Assembly (NCBI GenBank): GCA_004794655.1
Contig: SMMW01000524.1
Coordinates: 248,001 to 312,000, forward strand
DNA: 64,000 nucleotides
Origin: Marisa cornuarietis
Taxonomy: Eukaryota; Mollusca; Gastropoda; Architaenioglossa; Ampullariidae
Direction of reading: 5' to 3'
Below the pieces are notes generated by a model. That model worked only from the letters and a program-made list of their open reading frames with translations, was not told the origin of the DNA and did no database searches. The number at the start of each line of letters is the position of its first letter. Position 1 is the first letter of the stretch. This document shows, piece by piece, positions 6,976 to 56,168 of the stretch. The translations under genes and the position numbers were made by a program.

Positions 6976-7956
6976 GGAACAGCTTTCTTATAGGGGGGTA
7001 ACGCGACGCCATAACAAAAATGGCTTACCTGTAGGCGGAGCTATGCAAAATAGTGACGTCACTATTACGTCACTCATCTTCTGCTCTCTCCTCGCTTAAC
7101 TCCCCTGATATCGTCTGCTTCATCTTCTTCGAATCCTTCCTCCAATTTTTCCGAGAAATAATATCCACAAATGAACAAAATTTTTCCTGACGTCGCCTTC
7201 CCAATCTTCTTCGAATTCTTCCTCCACTTTTTCCGAGAAATAATATAAAAAAATAAACAAAATTTCTCCTCCCCCCAAAAATTGCGTAAAACTATCAAAT
7301 CACTCAACTTCTTCTGTCTCCTCGCTACACCCTCCTGATCTCGACTGCTCCTCCAAATTCGACTCCCTACTCCAATCTACCCGAGAAACAGTATCCAAAA
7401 TTACACAAAATTTATCCTCCCCCGACAATTTCGAAACTCTATCAAATAAAAAGTCAGCCAACACATGCTGAAAATCCCCCTAAGCAAAACATCCAGGCTG
7501 TACTTTCCAGACTCTGCACCTCTCAACTTTTCCTTGAAATCCACAATTGCACCACAAATTTTCCCCAAATTTCCATGCACACTCGCCATCTTCAATCCTC
7601 TCGACTTTCTATCGTCTGCTAACATGAAATTAAATCAACAAACTCCCCCCCCCCGCACCAAATATCACATGACTAAAACCAGCCAATAATTTCACACAAC
7701 TCCATGTCAATCACTAAAACGTCAATCGACCAGTCCTAAACATTTGTCCTCTGGTCAATTCACTACAATATAACCCTAACCCTACCCCTAACCCACACCC
7801 ATAAACCTAACCCTAACTCATAAATCACACACAACACCAACCAACGCCCAACCTCACACCCCTCTCAAATATCGATCCTACCCGCTCTCCCCTCTCACAA
7901 AATAGCACAGCCCGCCGTCACCTAGTCAGACCCCCTATAATGCCTATATGAAAGTT
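6976..7956 (+). mobile_element. Dispersed repeat copy 1 with TIR-like ends and telomere-like core
   Basis: Begins GGAACAGCTTTCTTATAGGG and ends near CCTATATGAAAGTTC. The reverse complement of the end (GAACTTTCATATAGG) pairs with the start apart from a short gap, as expected for terminal inverted repeats. It shares nearly its whole length with 35006-35805, including ACGCGACGCCATAACAAAAA and CTCTCGACTTTCTATCGTC. No transposase is visible. Confidence 0.75.
7771..7830. repeat. Interstitial telomere-like CCCTAA tract
   Basis: Degenerate CCCTAA/CCCCTA units inside dispersed repeat copy 1. The metazoan telomere unit is TTAGGG; the tract sits at the matching place in both repeat copies, so it travelled with the element. 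Confidence 0.8.
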
Positions 7957-29712: not shown

Positions 29713-29926
29713 CTAGCGCTTATGGTTATCATCTTTTTTGTCGTCTTTTCCTCCGTCTTGTTCGCTTTTCTTGTCTTTACACTTCAGTGCCTTCAATGTA
29801 GATAAAAACACACTCGTCCAAGTGATGGTGGTTTGTGCAGCGGTAAGTGCTCCTGCGGCTCCAATAGACTGGAAAGTACCCACCACACCCGCTCCGACCC
29901 TTGGAAGATCAGAATAATGGTGACAT

Positions 29927-29995
<69 letters not shown>

Positions 29996-32900
29996 CGACG
30001 ACGCCTGTGGCGCCTGTCGCTCATAACTGAAGCTCCACGTCTCGTACAAGCAAGGCATTTAAGAAAAGTGAGAAAGCAATCAAAGTAAAACAAAGACGAG
30101 CAGAAGAATAGGATAGGAGAAAGGACTCGGGAGGGGAGGGCCTTAGAGGCTGAACTCCCTTCGCACTAACAAAGTTGTGTGGGGCGATGTACATGCGTTT
30201 TTTTGTGACGACAGAGGTTGACAGTTATGCAAACATACGTCGCTTGTCCAATCCTTTCCAAAAATTATGTCGTTTGTACGATCATCGCCAAAATTGGCAG
30301 AAACATTCTTTTCGTCTACGGTAATGTCATGGACTTGTCTGGTTTATATTACACGTTCTAAGATGTTTCCAGTTTCTCGAAATGGCAAGAGAAAAAGATT
30401 CTACTACGCAAACTCGATGTATCTCTATTACAGAGAGGAAGTTGGACAACGTCGCAGTTTGAGGGAAGAGATTGCGAGTGTGCAAAAGACAGACAGGAGA
30501 AGGAAATGAGGGACTGGGTAGGGAGCTAGTCATGAGGTGGCAGGCACCACCGCATTTTATATCTCCCACTTCATTAGAAACGGCCTGCGACCCTTTTAAC
30601 ATTCCATCTGCTACAGACCTGCTTTACACTGTGCGCTGTAACTAAGACGACGCTTGGTACCTGGACGCAAGGTAGGACCAATATGTCAAATGAAGCCTGT
30701 AGGACAAATGTGTCCAATGAAGCCTGTTTCAAGTTGTTAGGATGAATGAACAGGGTTAATTGTGTACGATCCTCGTGTGATCATCACAATGGAACGCTGG
30801 CACTTTGGTGGAGGACAGTTTGATCATGTGGGAGACTAAACATGAAGAGAGCAGCAAGTAAACTTACTGTTGGCTCACCCTTTATGATCATATTAATTAT
30901 AACAACAATAATTAATAAACACTTTAAAAACTTCAAGTGACCTTTCCAACTAAAAATGTCATTTGTTATCTACCCATATGAAGTGGATAGCGCCATTAAC
31001 TTAGCAGCTATGGTTCCGGCAGCGATGCCTCCCGCTCCGAAGCCAGCTGCTGAAATCAACACCGGTGTTCCCAAGACGGCCGCCCCGCCCACGGCCGCCG
31101 AGATTCCCAGCCTCTTCAGTAGGGCAATCTTAAACCACATGACATCCTGTAAGCTTTCGACGAACTGTATACTTTGAATTATTATTTATTACCTACATGA
31201 AATGTATGAAATACGAGCCAGGAACTACAAACTTCAAAGTGCAAAATATCAATAACAACTATAAGCTACAAACAAAGAGCTCTAAACTATAAGACCTTAG
31301 AAGTATGAACATTGACATACAATCTACGAAGGAACGACACTCTGCTGTATTGATAAGACTGGCAAGTAGCCAGTCACCAGTATGGAGATGTGTCTGTGGT
31401 TCTAGTGAATCTGTAGGAAATATCTGTACCGTTTGTTGGAACCTCATCAAAGTTGCTAAGCATGCTCTCCTGTCGTCTCCAGAAAGGTTCATGTTTGCTT
31501 GCTGTAGGCTGGTCCCGAGCATGTTTATGTTTAGTGTTTATTTTTGCTGTTCTGTTTTGGGTGGGCTCCGAATGAATGAAAAACTACTAAATTGCCATTT
31601 GCGATATACTTCAATTATAGCAAGTAAATCTTGATTAGGTCCTAATTTAAGAGGCAAGCATATTAATGAGAGTGAATGACAGAGTCAGAGGGTGAGGAAG
31701 GAAGCGAGTAGCGAGTCACATGGCACTACAGCAATTCTCCTTCTTTATCACTGTATTAACGATAAATGATTTAAACACTTTTAATGTTCGTTTTAATATC
31801 AGTCTTCTCCCTTCTCTAACCCCTAAGGGGGTCAGGTACCCGTTCAAAAAGCTGGGTTAACTGGAGAGAAGAACACTGCAGCAATCGGACGGCGAGAAAG
31901 TTTGTGCTCGCCTTCAGCCTCAGGTCCCTGTGTTTTAATCACTACGATATCCGCTTCTACTGTTTAAAAAATGCGAATCAGAACAAACCCCAAAAAACAG
32001 GGTGTTTCGTGTCAAGTTAATATTTCTTATCTCATGTCGAGTTATCTCTGCACTGCTGTCTGTCGCCATTGTGTAATCCTCTAAATGCAATTATTCATAG
32101 GTTGGTGGACAGATATATGCTTCCCGAGCCGACTTCTAGCAGCAGATGACACAGCAAGGGATAAATGGCACAGTAAGGAATAAACAATAATCCTGTGTAC
32201 ACTGCACCTGTGACACATTGTCAGGAACACACGGGACGTGCAGACCGGTCACAGCGTTCCTCACGTGTTCTTTCACACAACGAAGTACTAAGACCTGTAC
32301 GTGGGTTACTATATCTCTATAATGAAACAATTCCAAATATTTTTCCCACTTCAAATAAATTTTACATCAACATTACTCGCAACTAATTAATGTCTACATA
32401 AACCCTTCTAATAATATAAATATCTCCAGTCAATATATGACAACAAGCAGGGATCAATATATGACAATAAGCAAGCAGGAATATCCTTTCAACAACGTAG
32501 ATGTCTCTCAACCTTCCAATCAATCGTCGCTAAACATCTCTCCTTTCTATTTCTCAAACTTCCTTCCAATGTTCACCCACAGCTTCTCAGAAAGTAAATG
32601 ACCAAAACACACTGTCAACGTCAGGTCAGAACACACGTACTCACAGATATAAACTTGCCTGTAATACTCCTCCTTGAAACTATACAGAAATACACAGCAC
32701 TGTGAATCTCCAAAGCACACAACAATTACTCCCAATACAGAATCTTCCAGCAGACACACAGCAACTGGGGAAACTCTTCAATCACCAGCAATACTCTGAT
32801 TATCAGAATCCACCAGCAGACACACAGCAACTGGGGAAACTCTTCAAACACCAGCAATATTCCGATTATCAGAATCCACCAGCAGACACACAGCAGCTGG

Positions 32901-33940
32901 GGAATCTCTCCAAACACATAGCAATACTCCGAACGCAGACCACCTTTTCTTTTTCTCCAAACTCACACACACCGGTACACTCCACCCAGACGATCACTTT
33001 CTCCAGAAACTTCTCCAATCTCGCAGACGACACCTCACGTCATACCTCCTTTTACGTCACGCCTTCTAAACCATACACCAAACGTACATCCAAGGGCCAC
33101 TATCCCTGCTGCACAAAACAAACAAGAAGGCTAACTCCATTTCTGACATTCGCTTTTTCGCTTTCAAAATAATAATAAAAATCAACAGATCATTTGTACA
33201 GCGCCTTTTTCCAGCATTAGCCAGACTCAAGGCGCTTAAAATATAAACATGCAGACATGAGAATAATAATGGTCTCAAAACAGAGTTCCTTGTGTTTTCA
33301 AATTGAATGCCGTCTGCATAGATGCAGTCACAACAGCTCATTTAAACTACAAGGTGCAGCTGAGATTTGTAGTCGTAGTATCAGTGGAATAGTTAGTGAT
33401 GGAGGTGGCGGCACATATAACAAAAATTAAGTTGTTCATTGTTAGCGCACATACGACTGTCACGGAGTTCACATCAACACGTACAGCGGAACACACTCTC
33501 AACCAGTCAGGGCTCTGATCCTCTCTGATCCCTGACACATGTTCCCGTTTCATTTCGGTCCGTTAATGAAATTTTGTGCACACGGGAGTGTGTGGTACGT
33601 GGCAGTCGTGTTTTCAGTTATTAAAACCCGTTAGGAATTTTTCTATTTCCTGTTCTAACATTGCAGTCAGCATCCACCTAGCATATCACTGTGCAAGAGA
33701 TCCATGCAGTTAAGGTATCAAAGTATCTCTGTTCTCTACACTAATCTGAGCGTAAGACACTACACAACATTGAAACTGGTAACGAGGTTAGCTAAATGGA
33801 GATCAGGAAGCATGTTTTGATTTTATCTTCAACATCTGCTTTTTTGAGATATTGTCAACAGAGACTCGCAGTCTTTGTTTCAACTAAGTAAGAAGGACAT
33901 GGCATGTGAACAGAGTCTATCTTACCTTTGAGGAGGCCAT
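29713..33940 (-). CDS. Gene A: ISG12/IFI27-like small membrane protein without LDLa
   Basis: Three exons give 124 aa: 33940-33926 (MASSK, donor GTAAGA), 31146-30974 and 29899-29713 (stop TAG). Phases are 0 then 2. The protein has a short amphipathic start (DVMWFKIALLKRLG), then the two-segment ISG12 domain: ISAAVGGAAVLGTPVLISAA, GFGAGGIAAGTIAAKLMA, and after the intron VGAGVVGTFQSIGAAGALTA. GFGAGGIAAGTIAAK is the most family-typical stretch in the window. The tail is Lys/Asp-rich (KDKKSEQ, KDDKKDD). No signal-peptide or LDLa exon was found in the 2.8-kb first intron, so this looks like the plain family form. If the MASSK exon were not used, translation could start at the Met in exon 2 (31140). 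The last intron has a long (CAT)n tract just before its acceptor. Confidence 0.83.
29927..29993. repeat. (ATG)n trinucleotide microsatellite in last intron of gene A
   Basis: About 22 copies of ATG/CAT end roughly 30-95 bp upstream of the last-exon acceptor (CTTCCAAG|G, minus strand). On the coding strand it is (CAT)n and would read as polyhistidine if retained, but it lies in the intron. Confidence 0.95.
32195..33555 (+). repeat. Dispersed repeat, copy 1, with 66-bp tandem core
   Basis: Matches 50440-51310 in inverted orientation, for example CAATCGTCGCTAAACA, CCAATGTTCACCC and GTTCCTCACGTG blocks. At 32747-32940 it contains three units of 66 bp starting CCAGCAGACACACAGC. It lies in intron 1 of gene A. 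No protein or terminal repeat was identified. Confidence 0.72.
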
Positions 33941-35005: not shown

Positions 35006-35805
35006 GAACAGCTTTCTTATAGGGTTAACGCGACGCCATAACAAAAATGGCTTACCTGTACGTCACTCATCTTCTGCTCTATCTCTCTCTCCTCGCTAAA
35101 CTCCCTGATATCGTCTGCTTCATCTTCTTTGAATCCTTCCTCCAATTATTCCGAGAAATAATATCCAGAAATGAACAAAAAAATTTCCTGACGTCGCCTT
35201 CCCCATCTTCTTCGAATCCTTCCTCCACATTCACATTCAGGTACAAACTCAAAAAAACAAATCAGTCTTTCACTAAACTCAACACAACATCCTTGTCACT
35301 TCTCCATAAATTCTAAACTTCTTTCTGTTGTACTTTCCAGACTCTGCATCTCTCAACTTTTCGACAATTGCACCACAAATTTTACCCAAATTTCCATGCA
35401 AACTCGCCATCTTCAATCCTCTCGACTTTCTATCGTCTGCTAACATGAAACCAAATCAACAAACTTTCCCGCACCAAATATCACATGACTAAAACCAGCC
35501 AATAATTTCACACAACTCCATGTCAATCACCATATATTACGTCACTCGACCAGTCCTAAACATTTGTCCTCTGCTCAATTCACTACAATATAACCTACCC
35601 CTACCCCTACCTCTACCCCTAACCCACACCCATAAACCTAACCCTAACCCAAACCCTAACCCTAATCCTGCTTCATAAATCACACACAACACCAACCAAC
35701 GCCCAACCTCACACCCCTGTCAAATATCGATCCTACCCGCTCTCCCCTCCCACAAAATAGCATAGCCCGCCGTGACCTACTAAAACCCCCTATATGAAAG
35801 TTCAT
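35006..35805 (+). mobile_element. Dispersed repeat copy 2 with TIR-like ends and telomere-like core
   Basis: Same element and orientation as 6976-7956 but about 180 bp shorter, with internal gaps. Ends at CCCCCTATATGAAAGTTC. Confidence 0.75.
35591..35669. repeat. Interstitial telomere-like CCCTAA tract
   Basis: Runs of CCCCTA, CCTAAC and CCCTAA units inside dispersed repeat copy 2. Confidence 0.82.
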
Positions 35806-37960: not shown

Positions 37961-40900
37961 CTAGTCCTCGTCCTCATCCCTGCCATGGTCCTTGTCCTGG
38001 GCCTTGTCCTTGTTCTTGTTCTTTCCGTTGTCGTGGACAGCTTTGTTGGATCCTGTGTTTTCTTCTTCGTCTTCTTCCACTTCTCCAACTCCTGCGCTTT
38101 GCGTTGCCCCGGTGGCCCCAATGGCGTGGAAAGTCGACACGACTCCCATTACCACTCTGTGAAACCACAGTGTAGTGTAAACATTGCTTTATTTCATCAT
38201 TATTATCTGAAGTTTTGTCAAAATTAAAATTTAAAATGTTGTCGTGTATGTGTGGGTGTAAATGTAATAAAAAAGCTTGAGCCTGCCTTCAAAGGTAGGA
38301 AAAGTCACTATAACTAATTTATTAAACTTTGAGTTAGCTACATCAAAAATGTCTTCAAATGTGCTATGACAAAATTCTCGAAGCGCAAGAAAACTTCTCC
38401 CTTTCATTATGTCTATTTCTTCTTTGATTCATTCTTTCTCGGAATCTTTCTCATACTCCTCTTTAACCCAGTATACAAGTGCTACATTCCTTCATTTTCT
38501 TTATTCACTAGAGCTATTCTGGGGATAGTTTGTGAATTACTGTGACACTAGGCCTATCCAGTGACTTACCCAAGTGTAGCAGTTCTGGGAATTGGCCCTG
38601 GTGTCAAAGTTCCAGCACCGATGCCTGCGACTCCAAAGCCAAGAGCTGCAACCGCCACTTGAGTGGCTGCGACAACTACAGCGCCGCCCGCCACCATCGC
38701 GCCTTCTGTCCTCCACCTGGGGGAGCCTGTGAGCAACATTTCATCTCCCATCTCAACGTTTATATAAACGAAGTTAGTGGAACACATTTGGTAATCTCTC
38801 AGTGTTCTGTGTTAATGTACACTAGCTAATAGTTTTCTCTGTTAGTGTACACTTATAATTTTCTTTATGAATTAGTTTGTGGATAGAAGTGAAAGATTTA
38901 GTTACAGCTATTTAATGTTCGTGCCAGTATCAAATCTGTTACATATGTCAGTAAAGCCTTTCTTCTTTCCTTTACTGTTTTATTATTTGTAGCGTACAAG
39001 GGGGTACAACAGTTGAGTATTGTTTTGTTCGACACACAGGTGTGCCTTGGTTTGACACTGCCACGCTGGAAGTCACGAGAACTTGAAAGTCTCGGTTTTT
39101 ACCTTATTCCACGTGCGAGCAGAGCAGAGCTCCATCCGTCCAGGTGGTTAGGGTGTCTTGTTTTTCTGTCGCTGTCATGCGAGTTGCATGAGAAAATTGA
39201 GGTTTTGGATATTTTAAAATTTTACGTGTGGGGCGGGCTTAGCTCACCTTGTGGCGATGTAAACAAGGGTGGGTATATTAGACCCGACATTTAGCAAGTA
39301 GGATAATGCTCGATTTGGACGATCGATATTCCGGCAATCCTGGTGTGTTGCTTGCTGTGTGCTGTCACTGACGGGGGGGTGCAGTCTTCATTCAGGCCTA
39401 CCAGTCGTCATAGTGTATGTCGACGTGAGGCGCTAGAGAGAGCGCTGGTTAGTGACAAGAGTTGTCACCGTACTTACTGGTATTCAAGCCGAGGGCTGTG
39501 ATTCTACTACCGGTACAGTACAAAAAGAACTTTTGCTGAAATCTGGATACAGGCGTCTGAGAACTTATCTGACGCAAACAAGAGGGACTCCGCCGAGAGC
39601 GTGGAAGGCTGTGGGAAACTACGGGTTTTGACGGCTGGAGCTGGCGCATAGACGGCCTGTGGTTCGGCAAAGACGAGTGAAAGGGTGTCCGCGTATCTCC
39701 AAGGTGGGGAGGAGCATCCGATACAGCGAGGCTGAATGACTGACTTGCGTGGGGGCGATATCCTACAGACGATATCCGAAGTTTCCGGAGGTCCACTGAC
39801 GCGAGGCAGAGGCATGAGCTTCCGATGATCTAACACCAGAAGAACATCCCCAACGAAGTAAGACTTTGATTAAGGTAGAGTGACGCACCAGATGTCCTCC
39901 CTGTATAACTCATACGTGAGGAGTTGCTAAAATATTTGTAAAAAGAAATAACTTGAACTTTAAAAGAAAAAGGGTCAAGTGGAGAACTTTGTGTTTGCGC
40001 TTCGGGTCCAGAGTGGGAAGAAATTAAGCACGCGTAGGAAGACGGATAGGTTATCCTTACTGAGGAGGTGATAAGGCCTAGGGTGTGCTACCCATTCTGA
40101 CTCTGTTGTTAGAACCAAGTATTTGTGTGTTGGTGCCGAGGGCACTGTCGCTGAAAGACATTTCTTCATATTTTTGTTTTGATATACCTGTTAGACACTA
40201 TTGTTTGTCAACAATTGCTCCTTGTGTATGCCTATTTATTGTTTACGTCAGCTTGAGCGGCGTAATAATTACAGAAAGAGAGGGATTTTCAGGCTACGTC
40301 TAGCCGTGAGAGTTTAAAGAAATGCTAAATATCATGTTTGACTAACTGCTCGTGTTAACTACTAATGCTTTGCCTTGTATAGAGCAGTTTTGAGCATATT
40401 TCTTTGTGTATTTAAATTGTGAATTTTGTGGTCAATAAGTATTTGTCTCTTTGAGGGACGTTCTACACCAGAGTGGTCATTTGTTGATTGTGTTGAGTTA
40501 ACGAATGCGCGTGTCTGCGGATGACTCGTCGTGTGTATGCGGGTGATCCTTGACATTATTGTCGTTTCTTTCTGCGTTCCCTATTTTTAAATTGTATTCT
40601 CAAAATCAAGGAGTTGTTGATATGGGAGCGAAGAGGTAGTCAAATGTAAGTAGTTCACTGTCTCTAGACAGACACGTGGAGGGCTGAGCCCAATACTCTC
40701 CTTTGCACCTTTTACCTTCCATGAGGAATCAGGTATCCATGTACTGGGTGGGAAGCAGGAGGTGCGGACAGCCTCAAACAAGAGACTTTCTGCATTGTAT
40801 AATCAACTCGTCAGCGAACCCAAGACAAAACAGAGACCATTCTGAGCAGTCGTCAAAGAGGATCAAGAAAAGAAGGAAAACAAAGGAACAAAAGGAAAAG

Positions 40901-41562
40901 AGAAACGAAGGATGAAAGAGAAATTTTGTAACTGAATTCCCACAAGACCTTAGACTGGGTGTTACTCACCACATTCATTCTCATCACTGCAGTCGTCACA
41001 GTCAGCCAAATCGTCGCACTTCCACTCAGATGGGATGCTGTGATGGACAGTTACACACTGGAGTTGATCCTGTGTGCACCTGACTGCAGAGTAAGAAAAT
41101 ATTGCATTGACATGGCGCAGCTGACAACTCATGTTTCTCGATGTTTGCAAACGCGAACTGAGAAATGGAGAATGGCAATTGAAACCCATATTAGACACAC
41201 CTACTTGTGCTTGAACATTGCATCGATATTTGAGGTATGAACTAAAAGACCACATGAAAACAAATTGACAGACAATCAACACAGTTTACATCATGTGAAA
41301 CTCTCTTTCAAAATACGTTAAATATATATACATTGCATTTTCGTGACATGAAATGTAAAAAGATATAAAAAAAATTACGTGTAAAGAAGTCTACCTTTCT
41401 CATTAAAGACTAATAAAAGCGGATTTTTATTTTCACATTACAGATATAAATTATCAGAATATATCATGTAATTTTAAAATGTCTTTTTTTGCAACACACG
41501 AAATGTAGTTCGAAGTACATGCTAGAGAAAGGTATCTAATTACAACTGCATGGGGGATGACA

Positions 41563-41659
<97 letters not shown>

Positions 41660-43034
41660 AGATTTATCATCGTGTGGGATCAGAGGTGACATCAGCAAAG
41701 CTTCGAAGAAAATGACGATCTGCAAAAAAGTATTTCGAAAAACTCCCTCCAATGATTAGCTGCAAGAATTTAATTTAACATGATATAAAAATTTTAAGTA
41801 GTGTGAATCTACGTAACAATAAAAATAACAATACAACCTGCATGGTGATGTCTTTTACTGTCAGCGAGCAAATTGACCAAGGCAGCAGGAAATTGCATTA
41901 TAAATCTGATTAATATATGGTCATAGTCCACAGAAAAAAGCCAGTTGCTCATTGATGCAGTGTTGACATCACTATTTGTTGTATGAGCTTTCTCTCTTAG
42001 CTTTTGTCTTTCCAGAAATTACCTACAAGGCAGTAGGGCCCTTTTGCCTTAGCTGGAAGTGTGGCATTTTTGAAGAATGAACCTAGTTTTACCTCCCCGA
42101 ATGAGCGCATGACCATCTGGGCACCTTAGTCTATTGCTGGCCTTGATGCTGCAAATGTAAGGCTAAAATGATGTAGCATTTCTTTGCCGGCGGTTGAGAA
42201 CGTGGAAAAAGTGCAATTCAGGGCTAACCAGATTTATTTTGTGTCATTTCAAAAGCCAGTTCGTTTCTCACAATAAGCTAAACGTGCACTACTGTCTGCT
42301 GTTGTTACCATGAGCTCTTAGTCATAATCAATAGATAGTTGGGTTGATTGATGGATGAACATTCGTTTGTCTTTGTGTATAAGGGTCTTCAACTCTTGCT
42401 GCTCGGATGAGGAACTCTCGTGCTTTAACCTCATTCATACTTGTTTGCTTACTCTTTTTCCTCATCCTCACGAATTTTCACTTTTCACCAAAGATTAGTA
42501 TTTTTGTCCGTAAGACCTTCCCACTCAACAAAGACGTTTGTTACTGTGTCGCAATGGCCACAACAAAGCTCATGTTACTGTCATGTCACTCACATGATCT
42601 GCTCATTGACTTCTTGCAGCAGATGGCGGAGCTTTCGTAAAACTTCTGTGATTTGTCTATGTCTCTATCATCAGCCCGACCTTCCCGGCCCATTGGAGCG
42701 TTTTGTGCATATCAAGGTTTTGTTTTAAGATTATTCAGCCTCGCCAAAACTTTCCTTTTAGTTGGTGTTTGAACAGAGAGCTACCTTCAATATAACATCA
42801 CTAATACCTTTCGTCCTATCCTAGTATCGTCATAATAATCGTCCTCCACCTACTCTGAGCGAAGGCAATACGTTGTCGGCATGTTGGCAATAATGGAGAA
42901 CGAGAAACATATTTCTATGTCTTCGGCATCTACTCTTTCTGTGATCTTGCCACAAAGAGTGCTAATCACAATCTTTGTAACAACCAAAGAAAAAAAAATC
43001 TGCCCGCAATCCATCTTACCTTTGAGGAGACCAT
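37961..43034 (-). CDS. Gene B: diverged LDLa-ISG12/IFI27-like paralogue, possibly decaying
   Basis: Exons homologous to gene C: 43034-43020 (MVSSK, donor GTAAGA), a signal-peptide exon starting at 41719 (IVIFFEALLMSPLIP) with no usable donor found, 41083-40970 (LDLa), 38726-38570 and 38156-37961 (stop TAG). Phases of the last three exons match gene C. The LDLa has lost Cys3 (HHSIPSEW against DKCIPSKW) and gained a Cys in the calcium loop (DDCSDE). The ISG12 part keeps VAGGAVVVAAT and LGFGVAGIGAGT, but then reads LTPGPIPRTA with helix-breaking prolines, and the second hydrophobic segment is replaced by VEEDEEEN. The tail is Lys/Asp-rich. An open frame persists through the downstream exons, so it could be a functional diverged gene or a recent pseudogene. 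A (CA)n tract abuts the second exon. Confidence 0.6.
38800..40680. other. Extra sequence in gene B intron, absent from gene C
   Basis: The distance from the LDLa exon to the first ISG12 exon is about 2.2 kb in B and 0.5 kb in C, while flanking intron sequence (40680-40960 with 45900-46150) aligns. The extra 1.7 kb has no recognised protein; it could be an insertion in B or a deletion in C. Confidence 0.5.
41569..41657. repeat. (TG)n microsatellite next to gene B signal-peptide exon
   Basis: TG repeats with one GTGG interruption near 41594. On the coding minus strand this is (CA)n directly after codons for DDKSS. It occupies the place where gene C has its exon 2 donor. Confidence 0.96.
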
Positions 43035-44849: not shown

Positions 44850-47800
44850 TTAGCGGCTGTCTTTGTCCTCGTCCTCGGGCTTGTCCGCGTTCTCATCCTC
44901 GTCCTCGGGCTTGTCCTTGTCATTGTTTTTGTTGTCATTTGAGACCTTGTCGCAGACAGCTTTGCCGACTCCTGCCCCAACTCCTCCAACGGCAGCGGTT
45001 TGGGCTAGAGTTAGCGCCCCTGTAGCTCCAACTGCTTGGAGAGTAGACACGACCCCCATTCCCACTCTGTGAAATCATAGTATACATGGAAACATTGCAT
45101 CATTAAATTATATTCTGTACTGTGGTCAAACACCGTTAAAAAGATTCACATGAACCTTTGTGTACGTTTATCCCTTAATACTTCTGTTCTACTTCCGCCT
45201 TAATGGCGGGGAAAAGTCGTTTTACAAAATAACGGCATTTACTTATTTAATATGCATGGCAAGGAGATTCTTTTTGCACTATCAAACAAAATGCCTTAAA
45301 ATTGAAAATGGCTTACAATACGTCTAGTATAAAAACATTTCCAACTGCTAAAAAGCTCTTTCTATCTTCGTGGTCTCTTTGTTTCTTCTTTTCTTTGACA
45401 TTCTTTCTTCGACTCTCATTTTTTTCCAGAATATAACTGCTACAGTCTTAATTTTCATCATGCTCCAGAGCTATTAAAGGAACAGTTTGTGAGTTACTAC
45501 TATACCAAGCATACCCAGTAACCTACCCTGTTGTAGCAGCGGTGGACATCGCTCCTGCTGCCACAGTCCCGGCACCGATGCCTGCGGTTCCAAAGCCGAG
45601 AGCTGCAACCGCCACCGGAGCGGCTGCGACAGCCAGAGCCCCTCCTGCCACAATGGCACCAGCCTTCCACCACCAGGAACCTGTGAACAACATTCCATCT
45701 TACATCTCAACGTTCGTCTTTACGACGTGACCCAATAATATTTGGTATTCTAATAATTTCCTGCACACTTTCTCATAATAGTGTGACTGAATGTAGACTT
45801 CGTGCACGCTGCCTCAAACCTAAAACAAGTAACCAGTGCTATAGCTTTGTGGCTGCGAAATAGTACAACTTGGTCCACCAAGATTTAAGACTGCGGTCAT
45901 CCCTCTCCTTTTGCACCTTCCACCTTCCCTAAGAAATTAGGTATCCATTTTCTGGCTCTCAGCAAGAGTTTTCCAGTCACAGGTCTGGAAAAGCCTTACA
46001 CTGAGAACTTCTGCATTGTATCAGTTGATCAAGGAACCCATGACGAAATGTAAACTATTCTGAACTGATGACTTCGCATATGTTCAAGAGAAAGAAAACA
46101 GGAAATAAGAAGGAGGATGAACAAGAAAATTTGTTATTGAACTCTTCCAAGACTTGAGACTTGCAGATACTAAGTTCCTACAAGACTTGAGACTCACTGT
46201 TACTTACCACATTCCTTCTCATCACTTTTGTCGGCACAGTCAGCCATACCGTCGCACTTCCACTTAGATGGGATGCACTTATCGACAGTTACACATTTGA
46301 ATTCATCGTGTGCACCTGACTGTAGTGTGAGAAAATATTGCATTCGTATAGCACATATCTCATTCCTTTAAGCGTTCTTAAGTGCCTGCTATGTAATGGA
46401 GTGTAACACATCGGATGAATCAGATCTTAATAGATATACTTAGACGTGTATTCAACACCCCGATACTGCCCGGGGCATTAAATAAAGACCCCATGATAAA
46501 AAACGCAGTATCAAATTAAAGCAAAAATCATGCGTAAGTCTGTTACTCTTTTTGACGCTTAATAATGTATCTTAATTAATCGATATGAAACTAAAACATT
46601 GAGTAAAAAAGGCCGACACACGTCTACAGACGAGTTTAGTTACTAATCGTAGTTGAATTTTTCTTTTAAAGAATGATATAAGCCATCCGTTTATGAGAGA
46701 CGAGGTAAAGCTTTCGCCACTGACATGGTTGACAGTACAGAATCCGTGACGTCACTAAAGTACATAACTATTTTATATTCACATAGCTCTCCAAGCCAAA
46801 CAGGTCTTGAAGTGGTTGTCCTGATTCAGCAAAAGAAACCACTTCTTTCCTTCTTCGTGTATATAATAGTGAAAGAGATCTAATAATAAATGCATGGAGC
46901 GGCGACACATATATATATATATATCACTTTATTTTTATCAACATATATTGGTAAATGTTCTAAAATTGTGGGGAGCTAGGGGTAAATATATTCTACCACA
47001 ACGTGCGACTAGAGGCGGGGTTGGTGAGATAAGAAGTGGCAAGATAAAGAGTTGAGATTGAATAAAATATGTGTATCTAGAAATATCTATATTTTACACG
47101 TATCATATTCACCATCGGGATGACTATAACCATGTGTGATCACAGGTGATGTCAGTAAGAACACAAGGAAAACGACCATCTGCAAACAAAATACTTTAAT
47201 GTCATTCTTCCAATGATTATCGACAGCAGTTCATCAAGCTCGGAAAATTTAAGGAGACATGAAATCGTCCTAAGATAAGAAAATACTTTAATGGCAAAGT
47301 GTTCGAGGCTTAAAAAAAACTATCATACTGACCAAGGCATTTTAAAGCGTTTGTATTTTTGAAACGTTGATTTAAATAAATAACTTCAACTGTTGTTTAA
47401 CACTTTCAAAAGGAAAATATTGTCTTTTCTTCTCTGTTGTATCAGTGACTTATTATTACTTTTGCGTGTTAATATAAACATTGTATATTTTTAACCTAAA
47501 ACAGTGTACTTGTATTAATAACAGTTTATTGGTGTAGACATTTAAATGCCATTTAATTGTAACAATGCGATATAATACCAATGTATCAACCTCATATAAC
47601 CGGTGCTTAGTACTTTTATTTGAACAATTGATAAGTTGCCTACGCAGACTCGCTCCAGACCAGTAAAGGCAGTAAGCCTGTAATGTAAGTCATCAAGTTA
47701 AACGTTAAGCCGTGTTTAGGCGACCGCCATGGCGACGGGGCTACACTGGCTACCACGCTGACCTCGACTTTCATGTCGGCGGGTATAGTCCTACTGCTGA

Positions 47801-48250
47801 TAAGACAGACCTGGTGGCCTGTTGTTATAGCCAAGCGTGAGCAGGACCCCGCCACTCACAGGAGATGACGTCAAGAGTGAGATTTGCTCTTTGACATCAG
47901 GAGGCAGGTGGCAGACGAGGGGGGCTGGGTGCCAGGCCCTGACAGCTCAGCCCCAGGTGTCTCCGACACCCTAGCAACTCACCTCTGTGTTTCATACACC
48001 GTGGCAACTCACCTCTGTGTTTCATACACCGTGGCAACTCACCTCTGTGTTTCATACACCGTGGCAACTCACCTCTGTGTTTCATACACCGTGGCAACTC
48101 ACCTCTGTGTTTCATACACCGTGGCAACTCACCTCTGTGTTTCATACACCGTGGCAACTCACCTCTGTGTTTCATACACCGTGGCAACTCACCTCTGTGT
48201 TTCATAAGTCATGATAACACTACCGTGTGCGCTATACACGAGCAACTTAC

Positions 48251-48322
<72 letters not shown>

Positions 48323-48530
48323 CTGACATAATAAAGACCAACACTTGACAAGAAAGATCATGTGACACGTAATACGAGCTTCATCGTTGTCATACTGATT
48401 CCCTCATGTCAAATTTGAGCCTTTGTTTACCTAAGGTATAACTGTTGTCTTGGCTATATTTATGTTTTCTTATGATCGATACGACAAAGAAATATGTTCT
48501 CCATATCCGTCTTACCTGTACAGATGCCAT
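44850..48530 (-). CDS. Gene C: LDLa-ISG12/IFI27-like membrane protein
   Basis: Five exons give 191 aa: 48530-48516 (MASVQ, donor GTAAGA), 47179-47098 ([17 protein letters not shown] plus ten residues), 46315-46208 (LDLa), 45680-45527, 45066-44850. Splice phases agree throughout. The exon 2/3 junction makes a Cys codon (T|GT), giving an LDLa module with all six cysteines, [10 protein letters not shown] and the calcium-site DCADKSDE; the LDLa exon is phase 1-1, as is usual for this module. The next exons encode the Gly/Ala-rich ISG12 domain ([52 protein letters not shown]), followed by an acidic tail with DKPEDEDE twice. ISG12/IFI27 proteins of vertebrates are small interferon-induced membrane proteins linked to apoptosis and antiviral defence; a role here is inference. 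A secreted-side LDLa on an ISG12 core is an unusual architecture. The weakest point is donor ACGT|GTAAAA of exon 2. Confidence 0.82.
47974..48206 (-). repeat. 30-bp tandem repeat, eight copies, each carrying a consensus 5' splice site
   Basis: The + strand unit CAACTCACCTCTGTGTTTCA plus CTTACACC-type spacer (in fact ATACACCGTGG) recurs exactly every 30 bp from 47975 to 48185. On the minus strand each copy reads CAGAG|GTGAGTTG, a near-perfect metazoan donor. The array lies in intron 1 of gene C, 310-540 bp downstream of its real donor. Both strands stay open across the array because 30 is a multiple of 3, so the long open frames here are not evidence of coding. Confidence 0.93.
48252..48319. 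repeat. (AC)n microsatellite in gene C intron 1
   Basis: About 34 perfect AC dinucleotides, directly beside the 30-bp donor-like array. Confidence 0.97.
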
Positions 48531-52687: not shown

Positions 52688-55600
52688 CTGAAAAATATAT
52701 TAAACACGGGTAATAATTTCTGTTTTATACAATTTTAACTGAAACAAGCCTGTACGATACTAAATATACATAGGACTGAAAAGCAAAGGATAAACAACAA
52801 GAAAAAGCAATTTCTGGCAGTAAAACATCCACAATTCGTCTTTTCGTGTCTGAAGGGTTTTGACCTTTTGTATCTGACCTTTTATCTAACCCTTCTTTAT
52901 TCGCCTCTTTGCTTAAAAAAAAAGGTTAGCGTTATTTGAGACTAGTTGTGACCTGCGGAACTTCCAGTATTCTTTCATTACAAAAAAATTATAAAGTCGC
53001 TAAAACTGCACGAAATGTCTGACACAGATCACTTCTATTGTTACAGTAATCCAACATAACTTAGAACGTAGCGGTTTTTTAATCTAGAAGAATAGGTATT
53101 TCTTGATTAAGCATACCCTGAATAATTTGTTGGTGGAGTGGTTTGTGGAAGAGGTGGCGGGGCTGCCTGTGCACGGACATGGTTTGACTTCTGCTCGTTC
53201 GTCTACCTCCATGTTTGTGAATTTATCAGAAAAATATCTGACATCCATTTTGCAGCTTAGGCATGGCAGGAATGGAACCGGCACTTTTCGTTGTGACACA
53301 TCATCCCAGTTCACGTCGTTGAAGAACGGATGTTTCTTGACTTCATCAGCTCCTCTCGTGCCCAAGCGCTTGTTGGGATCCTTGTGAAGCAAGGAGCTGA
53401 TGAAGTCTCGTGCTTCCATGGACAATGAACTGGGGTAAACTGTTGTGTTACACAGTATATTCCTGCAATAATAAATTGTTGTATTTGTATTTGTATGTCA
53501 TTAACGTGTACATTTGTCTCCATTTTCACTTTTCTCACACTCTGTCTCTCTCACAAGAAGTATTTGTCTCTCTCAGCCTCTTTCTTTCTCATTGTCTCAT
53601 TTCTTTCTTTCTCGACCCTCTTCTACATCATTCTACATTTTCTTTGTCAACAGGATCTTTGAATCAAACCTTTTTCTTACAAAAGCTAATGGCACTGATA
53701 GAGGCAAGTTAGTTTCATTTCAAAGCAAACTTTTCTCTGTATTCCCTCTTTCTCTCTATCTCTCTTCCTTTCTCATTGTCTCATTTTTTTCCCTAGCCCC
53801 CCCCCCTTCACTACATCATTCTCCGTTTAATGTTTCAACCAGATGAAAGGTCATTAGAAGCTAAGTTAGTGCCTACATCCTATTTATATTATCTAATTGC
53901 AGCGATAAAATATAATACAGACCAACAAATGTCTTTCTTAGAGCGTCCCTGACTGCCTGACGCGAAGGGAGAATGTCCGGTGACAAGTTCATACGCCACC
54001 ACCCCGAGTGCCCACCAGTCAATAGCCTGCAATAAATAAATAAATAAACAAACAAATAAATGATAGGTGTCGAGTGAGGGGATGGGGCATCGAAGAGGCC
54101 TTTATTTTCAAATGAGAAGAAATGAATAATGGTTTTACTTGAACAAGCGCCAGTTGATCAGAGCCGTTACTCAGGTAAATATACTTACATAGCCGTGTTT
54201 TTGATCAGGTCTTCTCTGGATGATCTCGGGTGCGAAATACTTAAGAGTTCCACATGCATCCCAGTGCTGTATCTGAAAGCACACGAGCAATGAAAATCAA
54301 CGTGCAAAGTAGTCTGTCTGACCTCCATGTACACTTAATGATAACATATAACAGACTCAAAAGATGTCTAACACTGTGATCTATGATAGTCAGTCATAAA
54401 GACAAGACAGCAGGTAGACAAAATAGCAAACACAAACGAAATAACGAATATTACCTCATCGCCAGAGACCATTTTACTGAAGCCAAAGTCTGTGAGTACA
54501 ATATGTCCTCCTGAGTCAATGAGGATGTTTTCAGGCTTAACATCTCTGTGTACAATCTTCAACTGTAGAGACAAAAAATACTCAATAATCTCCCACGGAA
54601 CATAATATGCGATACGTGCATAACCATAAAAGGAACATAATATGCAATGTGTATATAACCATAAAAAGAAAATAACATGCAATGCGTACATAAAATCACA
54701 AAAGGAGAAACCCTTGAGTTTCGGTTAGTTTTAAGCTCTGGTGGAGAAGGAGTTGAACCCTGGAGGCGGGTGAGGATAAAGGGTGGAGGTGGGGGCGAGA
54801 AACCTCGCGCTTCATATAATTTAAAAAAAAAATTTCAAGGAGAAGGTTGCACATATATTTACTGAAAAAAAGTTTTTTTCCATAGAGACATAGACTCAAG
54901 AAGGTCTAAGGAAAGAAAATGTTAGTACCATGTTGTTCAGGTGGACTTACCTTGTGCAGGTGCTCTAGTGCAAGTACCAGTTCACTGATGTAAAATTGCA
55001 CGCTCCTCTCACTCAACTTCCTTTGCTGAACCTTCTGGTTAAACAAGTCGCCTCCGTTTATAAAATCTAGAAGAGAAAGAACTCATGTCACGGGATGGAT
55101 GGTTTTATCGGAAGTAAGATATCTAGTGATTTTCTGTTTCTCTCCGAGTGTCTACATGGATTATGAGAGCTAGACAGGAGATGGAATCGTCCTATGATCA
55201 CGTGTCTATGGCCATGTTTAATTTCATGCTGTTAATTGATTGAATATTGCCATGGCCGCTCAGCTCTCTACATTGGATCTCATCATGTGAATATGCCAGA
55301 AATGTTTAACTGCAGAACCTTCAAGTTCAGACCGGGGCTACGAGGTCAGAGAACATGTCTTGTCTACAACAACACAACATCTGACAAAACTAGAATTGAC
55401 TTGTAAACACGCCAATCGTCTTCTTGTCTTTTTAGCCCAGAGAAAATTGTAAAAGTTCTTCTGTAGAACAGACAGGTACTTCTCGAGTTATATCTGTAAG
55501 TTCAGTTGCTGGACGGTGTCCGTGCTAAAGTCAGCATTGCTGAATGTCAGGAATAAGAAGTAAAAGTTTTAACATTCAGATTGAGAGGAATAATAAGACT

Positions 55601-56168
55601 GACATATTGAACATACCCAGCACGACGTTGAGGTCCGTTTCTGTTTCGAAGGCATAGTGGAGCGTGGCGAGAAATGGTTGCCCTCGCACACACTCCAGCA
55701 CCTTTCGTTCGTTCATGAAGTATCCCATCCTCCTCATCTCCGTCGTCTTCCGAACTTGTTTAAGTGCATATAGGCGACCATGGTCATACCCGCCGACCTT
55801 CCGCACCAGGAAAACTTTTCCATAACCTAGACACAGTGGCAGCCTTCATCGGTTAATTACCTTATTTGTTAATTAAACACTTAATCAGCTTTTCACATGT
55901 TCACTTCATGAATTAAAAAGTTTAAGTACAATCAAAGGGTCAAAAGAAATGGAATAGTGTAGAAAGCTGCAGATTTCCTTATTATGGACTTAATCTGACT
56001 TTCATGCACCCACTAATAGTTATATATATATATATATATTTATTTATATAATGAAGGATATACAGTAATCATAAGCTTGACTGCATGTCATCGTCAGAAC
56101 ACATGCTTACCTCCCATTCCAAGGATGACTTTTTTCTCAAAGTCAGTTGTTCCAACTTTTTTGCTCAT
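52085..56168 (-). CDS. AGC-family Ser/Thr kinase, MSK/RSK N-terminal-domain-like, single kinase domain with duplicated C-terminal tail
   Basis: Eight coding exons join in frame (542 aa): 56168-56111, 55826-55617, 55066-54951, 54562-54455, 54272-54189, 54026-53923, 53462-53117, 52687-52085. All introns are GT/AG. Visible motifs: glycine loop GMGGYGKVF (17-25), beta-3 Lys42 in YALK, alpha-C Glu59, HRDVKPEN (133-140), DFG (153-155), [10 protein letters not shown] (171-180), AIDWWALG (193-200), and an AGC tail ending FRDFSY (341-346), a textbook hydrophobic motif made by joining exons 7 and 8. The closest family I recognise is the N-terminal kinase domain of MSK/RSK/p70S6K; motifs such as the FINGGDLF and LALEHLH stretches fit MSK best. 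Unlike MSK there is no CaMK-like second kinase domain; a 200-residue Ser/Thr-rich tail follows. Asp169 sits where MSK has the activation-loop Ser. The start is the first ATG after an acceptor at 56174-56176, so a 5'UTR exon probably lies upstream. A nuclear location is inferred from the KRRRLK tail. The exon 6 donor (TTG|GTCTGT) is weak but is the only one keeping frame. Confidence 0.92.

What the first reader, a model, noticed from the sequence alone, without database searches (positions are those of the whole stretch)
44850..48530. LDLa domain fused to an ISG12/IFI27 membrane core
Gene C joins a signal peptide, a complete six-cysteine LDLa module and an ISG12 domain in one phase-consistent five-exon frame. 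Family members I know are small proteins without an extracellular module. An LDLa ectodomain would place the protein on the surface or in secretory or lysosomal membranes and could bind a ligand. The Cys codon completed across the exon 2/3 junction strongly supports the model.
Basis: partly seen in the sequence, partly recalled or inferred. Interest (0 to 1): 0.88.

Follow-up and report, generated by a model that had tools for sequence, protein, structure and literature searches.

The report
Snail ISG12 gene with LDL-receptor module
A snail immune-type membrane protein gene appears to have picked up a complete LDL-receptor binding module in its own exon, which would give a normally plain membrane protein a ligand-binding head; no transcript was available and no second species with it was found here.

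Summary
On the minus strand five exons (48530-44850) join at GT..AG sites into one 191-residue frame: short start exon, hydrophobic signal-peptide exon, LDLa exon, ISG12 core exon, ISG12/acidic-tail exon. Pfam finds both domains above its cut-offs: Ldl_recept_a 45.3 bits (cut-off 24.1), Ifi-6-16 38.0 (29.1). The LDLa exon is a symmetrical phase 1-1 cassette. A damaged copy (gene B, its LDLa-like exon 5 kb from that of C) keeps the exon in the same place, so the arrangement probably predates that duplication. A third copy (gene A) has no LDLa.

0 of 47 relatives found carry LDLa, and five paper searches showed no such fusion. Against: no transcript, and the closest relative (Pomacea canaliculata C0Q70_09574) is modelled with the first exon joined straight to the core. 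Skipping the cassette leaves an intact 155-residue signal-peptide-ISG12 protein, so the LDLa form may be one of two isoforms. The signal peptide itself is not new. I rate it a new domain combination within the ISG12 family: gene model likely real, function inferred.

The parts
48516..48530 (-). gene C exon 1, coding part: MASVQ, phase 0 donor
   Evidence: GT donor; start MASxK/Q resembles gene A (MASSK), gene B (MVSSK), P0003 (MACTK) and P0006 (MACVK)
47098..47179 (-). gene C exon 2: signal-peptide exon [27 protein letters not shown], phase 0 in, phase 1 out
   Evidence: AG/GT ends; hydropathy; resembles P0003 VTLLLAILLMSPMTAQG by eye
46208..46315 (-). gene C exon 3: six-cysteine LDLa module, symmetrical phase 1-1, 108 nt (its first Cys codon begins with the last base of exon 2)
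   Evidence: Pfam PF00057 45.3 bits, E 1e-11; ends AG/GT
45527..45680 (-). gene C exon 4: ISG12 core, first hydrophobic helix and Gly/Ala-rich stretch
   Evidence: Pfam PF06140 38 bits over residues 78-156, exons 4 and 5 together
44850..45066 (-). gene C exon 5: rest of ISG12 core and Lys/Asp/Glu-rich tail, stop TAA
43020..43034 (-). gene B exon 1 (MVSSK)
41672..41725 (-). gene B remnant of the signal-peptide exon, Met at its start replaced, running into a (CA)n array at 41567-41657, no clear donor
   Evidence: weak tblastn hit, E 0.58; read by eye; array
40970..41083 (-). gene B LDLa-like exon, third cysteine replaced by Ser, another Cys present; in frame with the acceptor 4 nt upstream of the one used in gene C
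   Evidence: Pfam PF00057 24.6 bits against cut-off 24.1
38570..38726 (-). gene B ISG12 core exon
   Evidence: 64% identity to core of C over 47 aa, E 2e-15; the joined B piece scores only 10.7 bits for PF06140, below cut-off 29.1
37961..38156 (-). gene B last exon
33926..33940 (-). gene A exon 1 (MASSK), phase 0
30974..31146 (-). gene A ISG12 core exon, joined directly to exon 1 in this model; no LDLa
   Evidence: gene A as a whole PF06140 40.6 bits, no PF00057
29713..29899 (-). gene A last exon

Best explanation
Gene C is an intact member of a small tandem ISG12/IFI27 cluster, most likely in a gastropod genome. A symmetrical phase 1-1 LDLa exon lies between the signal-peptide exon and the ISG12 core exon. 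Shown: gene structure, phases, both domains, an LDLa-like exon in the same place in gene B. Inferred: the exon was inserted into a phase-1 intron of an ordinary secretory-pathway ISG12 gene (exon shuffling) before genes B and C separated; the signal peptide takes the protein into the ER; the LDLa module folds with three disulfides and one calcium on the lumenal/outer side; the hydrophobic ISG12 helices anchor it in the membrane; and the LDLa module (Trp plus acidic cluster) binds a lysine-bearing ligand, so that a membrane protein of a stress/immune family gains a ligand-binding head. The cassette exon can be skipped in frame, so the same gene could make a form with and a form without the head.
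For: Five exons, GT..AG introns, one frame; both domains above Pfam cut-offs; the only open choice of four at the exon 2/3 junction gives the LDLa; gene B keeps an LDLa-like exon between its signal-peptide remnant and its core; exon 1 and signal-peptide exon resemble Pomacea P0003 and P0006 by eye; core of C groups with P0001 and B (98/99 support). Without constraint an LDLa exon would soon lose its six Cys, Trp and four acidic residues: at 0.2 changes per site 0.37% of 20,000 simulated copies keep all with no stop, at 0.05 it is 22.9%. The profile that includes C matches human IFI27L1, solved as 2loq. Skipping exon 3 leaves a 155-aa frame.
Against: No transcript or protein evidence. No LDLa in any of the 47 relatives found, a search that only considers proteins of about half to 1.75 times the query's length. 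P0001, the closest relative, is modelled as exon 1 joined to the core, without exons 2-3. B and C differ in the LDLa exon in the ratio expected without constraint (17 amino-acid-changing to 3 silent; dN/dS 1.17; p 1.0 against neutral), though B looks decayed. The simulation assumes a canonical ancestor, and the divergence of C alone is unknown. The AlphaFold model of P0001 has low confidence (mean pLDDT 60.9, pTM 0.25), so the number of membrane crossings is open. Ligand, location and role were not tested.
Confidence: 0.62

Rival explanations
1. The LDLa exon is a seldom-used cassette: the main product is the plain signal-peptide-ISG12 protein (exons 1-2-4-5, 155 aa), as in Pomacea P0003 and shrimp IFI6-16.
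For: Exon 3 is symmetrical and its omission keeps the frame; plain signal-peptide-ISG12 relatives exist by eye and in print (PMC9144789 passages); the nearest relative P0001 is modelled without the exon.
Against: The module has kept the diagnostic residues tested, which a seldom-used exon would tend to lose; its splice sites are intact.
Confidence: 0.25
2. The exon is a dead relic: LDLa was inserted but transcripts go from exon 1 to the core, as in the Pomacea model C0Q70_09574.
For: P0001 contains what looks like translated exon 1 surroundings (EAHNAGVREATLISVTHLHL, QHGICT) directly followed by the core (window frames; compared by eye); gene B shows that copies here decay.
Against: In this window that splice gives a 74-aa out-of-frame product, and the frame that gives QHGICT has a stop directly before it; P0001 begins in what is upstream of the start codon here, which looks like a forced gene prediction.
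Confidence: 0.1
3. The LDLa exon belongs to another gene lying between, or the order is an assembly error.
For: No RNA evidence excludes it.
Against: Same order and strand in two copies, B and C; a relaxed cysteine pattern run over six frames of the window finds only these two sites (a strict six-cysteine pattern finds none, as C's first Cys is split and B lacks one); phases fit ISG12 exons on both sides.
Confidence: 0.03

Closest known systems
Pomacea canaliculata hypothetical protein C0Q70_09574 (P0001)
   Same: 69% identical to C over 64% of it, 88% over the part aligned in the search of residues 30-135; shares exon 1 surroundings by eye
   Different: as modelled, lacks signal-peptide and LDLa exons and starts in sequence that lies upstream of the start codon in this window
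[quoted passage not shown]
   Same: MACTK/MACVK start, signal peptide like exon 2 of C, ISG12 core
   Different: no LDLa, no acidic tail
Shrimp LvIFI6-16 (PMC9144789, passages read)
   Same: invertebrate signal peptide, transmembrane region and IFI6-16 domain
   Different: no extracellular module described in the passages; antiviral role was tested there
Human IFI27L1 (PDB 2loq) and the FAM14/ISG12 family
   Same: ISG12 core, E 1.8e-10 with the profile that includes gene C
   Different: 113-residue chain; the small size and lack of LDLa in vertebrate members is recalled
Other ISG12 fusions: P0032 (SAM domains), P0027 (beta-trefoil lectin-like)
   Same: extra N-terminal domain in front of an ISG12 core
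   Different: no LDLa; P0027 shows no signal peptide by eye, P0032 is incomplete at its start
LDLRAD3, CD320 and other LDLa membrane proteins
   Same: LDLa module (chains listed; membrane biology recalled)
   Different: their membrane part is not ISG12 (recalled)

Membership tests
ISG12/IFI27/IFI6 (FAM14, Pfam PF06140) | Ifi-6-16 domain above Pfam's cut-off | tested here: met
   38.0 bits against 29.1, residues 78-156
ISG12/IFI27/IFI6 (FAM14, Pfam PF06140) | groups with ISG12 proteins on a tree | tested here: met
   C, B and Pomacea P0001 form a clade at 98/99 among 15 ISG12 rows; 8 of 12 inner branches are open; no outgroup was used
ISG12/IFI27/IFI6 (FAM14, Pfam PF06140) | induced by interferon-like or immune stimuli | not testable with these tools
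   no expression data for this genome; a Manila clam IFI27 is induced by LPS, PGN and poly(I:C) and another is repressed (PMC7430831, passages)
LDLa (Pfam PF00057) | profile above cut-off and six cysteines in order | tested here: met
   45.3 bits against 24.1; six Cys
LDLa (Pfam PF00057) | acidic calcium-binding positions and Trp | tested here: met
   Trp and D, D, D, E present; their role is recalled
LDLa (Pfam PF00057) | binds calcium and a ligand | not testable with these tools
   needs expressed protein
LDL-receptor family | LDLa arrays with EGF and beta-propeller modules (recalled) | tested here: not met
   one LDLa only; the Pfam scan to E 1 lists no EGF or propeller family for gene C

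The most novel reading that the evidence does not exclude
A gastropod lineage turned an ISG12 membrane effector into a receptor or decoy: the LDLa head sits on the cell surface or in endolysosomes, binds a lysine-bearing ligand (lipoprotein, protease-inhibitor complex or an invading particle), and binding is passed straight to the ISG12 helices, with alternative splicing of the symmetrical cassette switching the head on or off.
Probability: 0.2. Interest if true: 0.75.

Novelty: new variant of a known kind. Interest (0 to 1): 0.5.

Why it matters
ISG12 proteins are much studied in vertebrate antiviral responses and cell death, but how they are told to act is poorly understood (recalled). An ISG12 protein with a built-in ligand-binding module would be a natural experiment: it would say on which side of the membrane the N-terminus lies, and its ligand could be fished out. 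It would also be a clean example of exon shuffling into an innate-immune gene, with a plain paralog, the fused gene and a decaying copy side by side.

Tried and rejected
Considered and rejected: chance LDLa (45 bits); the LDLa exon as part of a larger LDL receptor (a relaxed cysteine pattern finds only the two LDLa-like sites in the window); other splice choices at the exon 2/3 junction (three of the four tested break the frame); exon 1 to exon 3 and exon 1 to exon 4 splices (13 and 74 aa, out of frame).

Tried without result: search of the window's own genome (genome search was busy and never answered: all the same request); the search for related loci with a stretch that held an intron (error, not repeated; the collection holds bacterial and archaeal genomes); phage records (no match, as expected). 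The order of the split between B, C and Pomacea P0001 could not be settled: B+C has 82/0 support and B has a long branch, so I do not claim that Pomacea must have the LDLa exon. The AlphaFold model of P0001 was too weak for a fold search, so none was run. I did not fold gene C itself, because its spliced protein cannot be read letter for letter from the window DNA.

Full report
What was checked. The stretch 44850-48530 was read on the minus strand and the five exons of gene C were joined by script. The four introns start GT and end AG and the join is one 576-nt frame, 191 residues plus stop. Pfam finds Ldl_recept_a (E 1e-11, 45.3 bits, cut-off 24.1, residues 32-68) and Ifi-6-16 (E 1.6e-9, 38.0 bits, cut-off 29.1, residues 78-156).

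Anatomy. Exon 1 gives MASVQ; exon 2 gives a hydrophobic stretch (residues 1-19 have mean Kyte-Doolittle 2.14, the highest of the 19-residue windows computed at steps of 3) ending in ...[13 protein letters not shown]; exon 3 holds almost exactly the LDLa module; exons 4 and 5 give the ISG12 core and a Lys/Asp/Glu-rich tail. Exon 3 is 108 nt with phase 1 on both sides. There are two GT and two AG close together at the exon 2/3 junction; only one of the four combinations keeps the frame (191 aa; the others stop after 37, 35 and 41). Leaving exon 3 out keeps the frame (155 aa); leaving exons 2 and 3 out does not (74 aa, out of frame).

Neighbours. The window holds two more ISG12 genes on the same strand. 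Gene A (exons 33940-33926, 31146-30974, 29899-29713) encodes 124 aa with Ifi-6-16 (40.6 bits) and no LDLa. Gene B lies between A and C. It has exon 1 (43034-43020), a weak remnant of the signal-peptide exon that runs into a (CA)n array (tblastn E 0.58; array 41567-41657; read by eye), an LDLa-like exon (41083-40970), a core exon and a last exon. Relative to C its LDLa exon carries a 2-nt difference that the alternative acceptor 4 nt upstream makes good (114 nt against 108; seen by eye). It lacks the third cysteine, has another in its place elsewhere, and scores 24.6 bits, just over the cut-off; its ISG12 part scores 10.7, below the cut-off. Changes between B and C in the LDLa exon are 17 amino-acid-changing and 3 silent (dN/dS 1.17); dN/dS is 0.57 in the core and 0.63 in the last exon. 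The LDLa ratio equals the neutral expectation (p 1.0), and that of core plus last exon is only marginally lower (p 0.09). B has the long branch on the tree (0.83 against 0.006 for C). I read B as a decaying copy. Its value is that it shows the LDLa exon in the same place a second time.

Is the LDLa of C constrained? Within one genome this cannot be measured directly. A simulation of unconstrained change from C's exon gave, for no stop plus six Cys plus Trp plus four acidic residues, 22.9%, 5.7%, 1.4%, 0.37% and 0.08% of 20,000 copies at 0.05, 0.1, 0.15, 0.2 and 0.25 changes per site. This favours constraint if C has been diverging for long, but C's own share of divergence is unknown, and at the lowest value the result says little.

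Relatives. Three database searches gave 47 different proteins (3 at E up to 0.01; 3 at E up to 10; 46 at E up to 1, where only the 7989 candidates sharing most words were scored). Candidates must share exact words with the query and be of roughly similar length, so a long or distant fusion could be missed. 45 of 47 carry a precomputed PF06140 (P0031 and P0039 carry none); 0 of 47 carry PF00057; 3 of 47 carry another domain (P0011, P0027, P0032). My own Pfam scan of 10 of the 47 found no LDLa at E up to 0.1. The nearest relative is Pomacea canaliculata C0Q70_09574 (P0001). Its core and tail match C, but its first 54 residues look, by eye, like a translation of the sequence around exon 1, and it goes from there straight into the core. 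In this window the same splice is out of frame, and the frame that gives QHGICT has a stop directly before it. I take P0001 as a doubtful gene prediction, but it is the one relative that speaks against the fusion. The window is probably from an apple snail or a near relative; this is inference, as the organism was not identified.

The signal peptide is not new. Of the 31 relatives whose full sequence I read, at least 6 begin with a signal-peptide-like stretch by eye: P0003, P0005, P0006, P0009, P0016, P0044. Pomacea P0003 (MACTK-VTLLLAILLMSPMTAQG-ICLGD...) resembles exons 1 and 2 of C and then goes straight to the core. P0014 shares the P0003 core but differs on both sides at, or within a residue of, the exon borders of gene C, as a genomic read-through would; the residues at its left border (Pro, then Gly) fit a phase-1 acceptor and not phase 0 or 2. 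This is an argument from protein letters only. If right, the plain gene has a phase-1 intron where C has its 1-1 LDLa exon, the classical condition for exon shuffling (recalled). Gene A does not share this: its core exon follows exon 1 in phase 0.

Structure. By sequence the only ISG12 relative with a solved structure is human IFI27L1, 2loq (E 5.9e-21 with the relatives' profile; E 1.8e-10 with the profile that includes C). AlphaFold of P0001 with 23 relatives predicts helices 56-80, 84-104 and 108-148 over the core, at low confidence (mean pLDDT 60.9, pTM 0.25). Hydropathy shows one clear membrane stretch in the core (windows between residues 73 and 109, up to 2.03) and weaker ones after it. 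Which side the tail lies on is open. The LDLa matches LDL-receptor, VLDLR, LRP2, CD320 and LDLRAD3 modules.

Literature. Five of the ten paper searches asked for ISG12/IFI27-type words together with LDLa-type words. Searches returned no paper; of the others I saw listings of 20 of 32, 20 of 96 and 12 of 17 papers, and no title or abstract start there describes such a fusion. The library holds open papers only, so absence is weak. [quoted passage not shown] An oyster transcriptome lists 25 for IFI27 in a table of immune transcripts (PMC4892480, passages); in Manila clam one IFI27 gene is strongly induced and another repressed by microbial mimics (PMC7430831, passages); in mussel it stands in a list of tissue-enriched transcripts with IAP and Hsp70 (PMC4581086, passages).

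Verdict. A real gene model with a domain combination not seen in the 47 relatives found: a new variant of the ISG12 family. That the protein works as a ligand-binding membrane protein is reasonable inference; that the LDLa form is the main product is open.

Noticed in passing
window 37961-43034, minus strand: Gene B: damaged copy of the LDLa-ISG12 gene; LDLa third Cys missing, signal-peptide exon running into a CA repeat, 2-nt difference made good by an alternative acceptor 4 nt upstream.
   Followed up: partly
window 29713-33940, minus strand: Gene A: plain three-exon ISG12 gene without LDLa and, by eye, without signal peptide; a (TGA)n repeat (29927-29995) lies in the intron close to its last exon.
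   Followed up: partly
window 53084-55845, minus strand: Exons of a protein kinase (Pfam Pkinase in three open frames, only one of them above the cut-off), resembling an AGC-type kinase such as MSK by eye.
   Followed up: partly
window 47966-48206: Eight nearly perfect copies of a 30-base repeat inside intron 1 of gene C, next to a (CA)n array at 48254-48319.
   Followed up: no
window 7771-7824 and 35594-35669: Two short interstitial arrays of telomere-like TAACCC/CCTAAC units.
   Followed up: no
P0032 and P0027: ISG12 cores fused to SAM domains and to a beta-trefoil lectin-like region in unnamed sequences: N-terminal fusions to ISG12 occur elsewhere too.
   Followed up: partly
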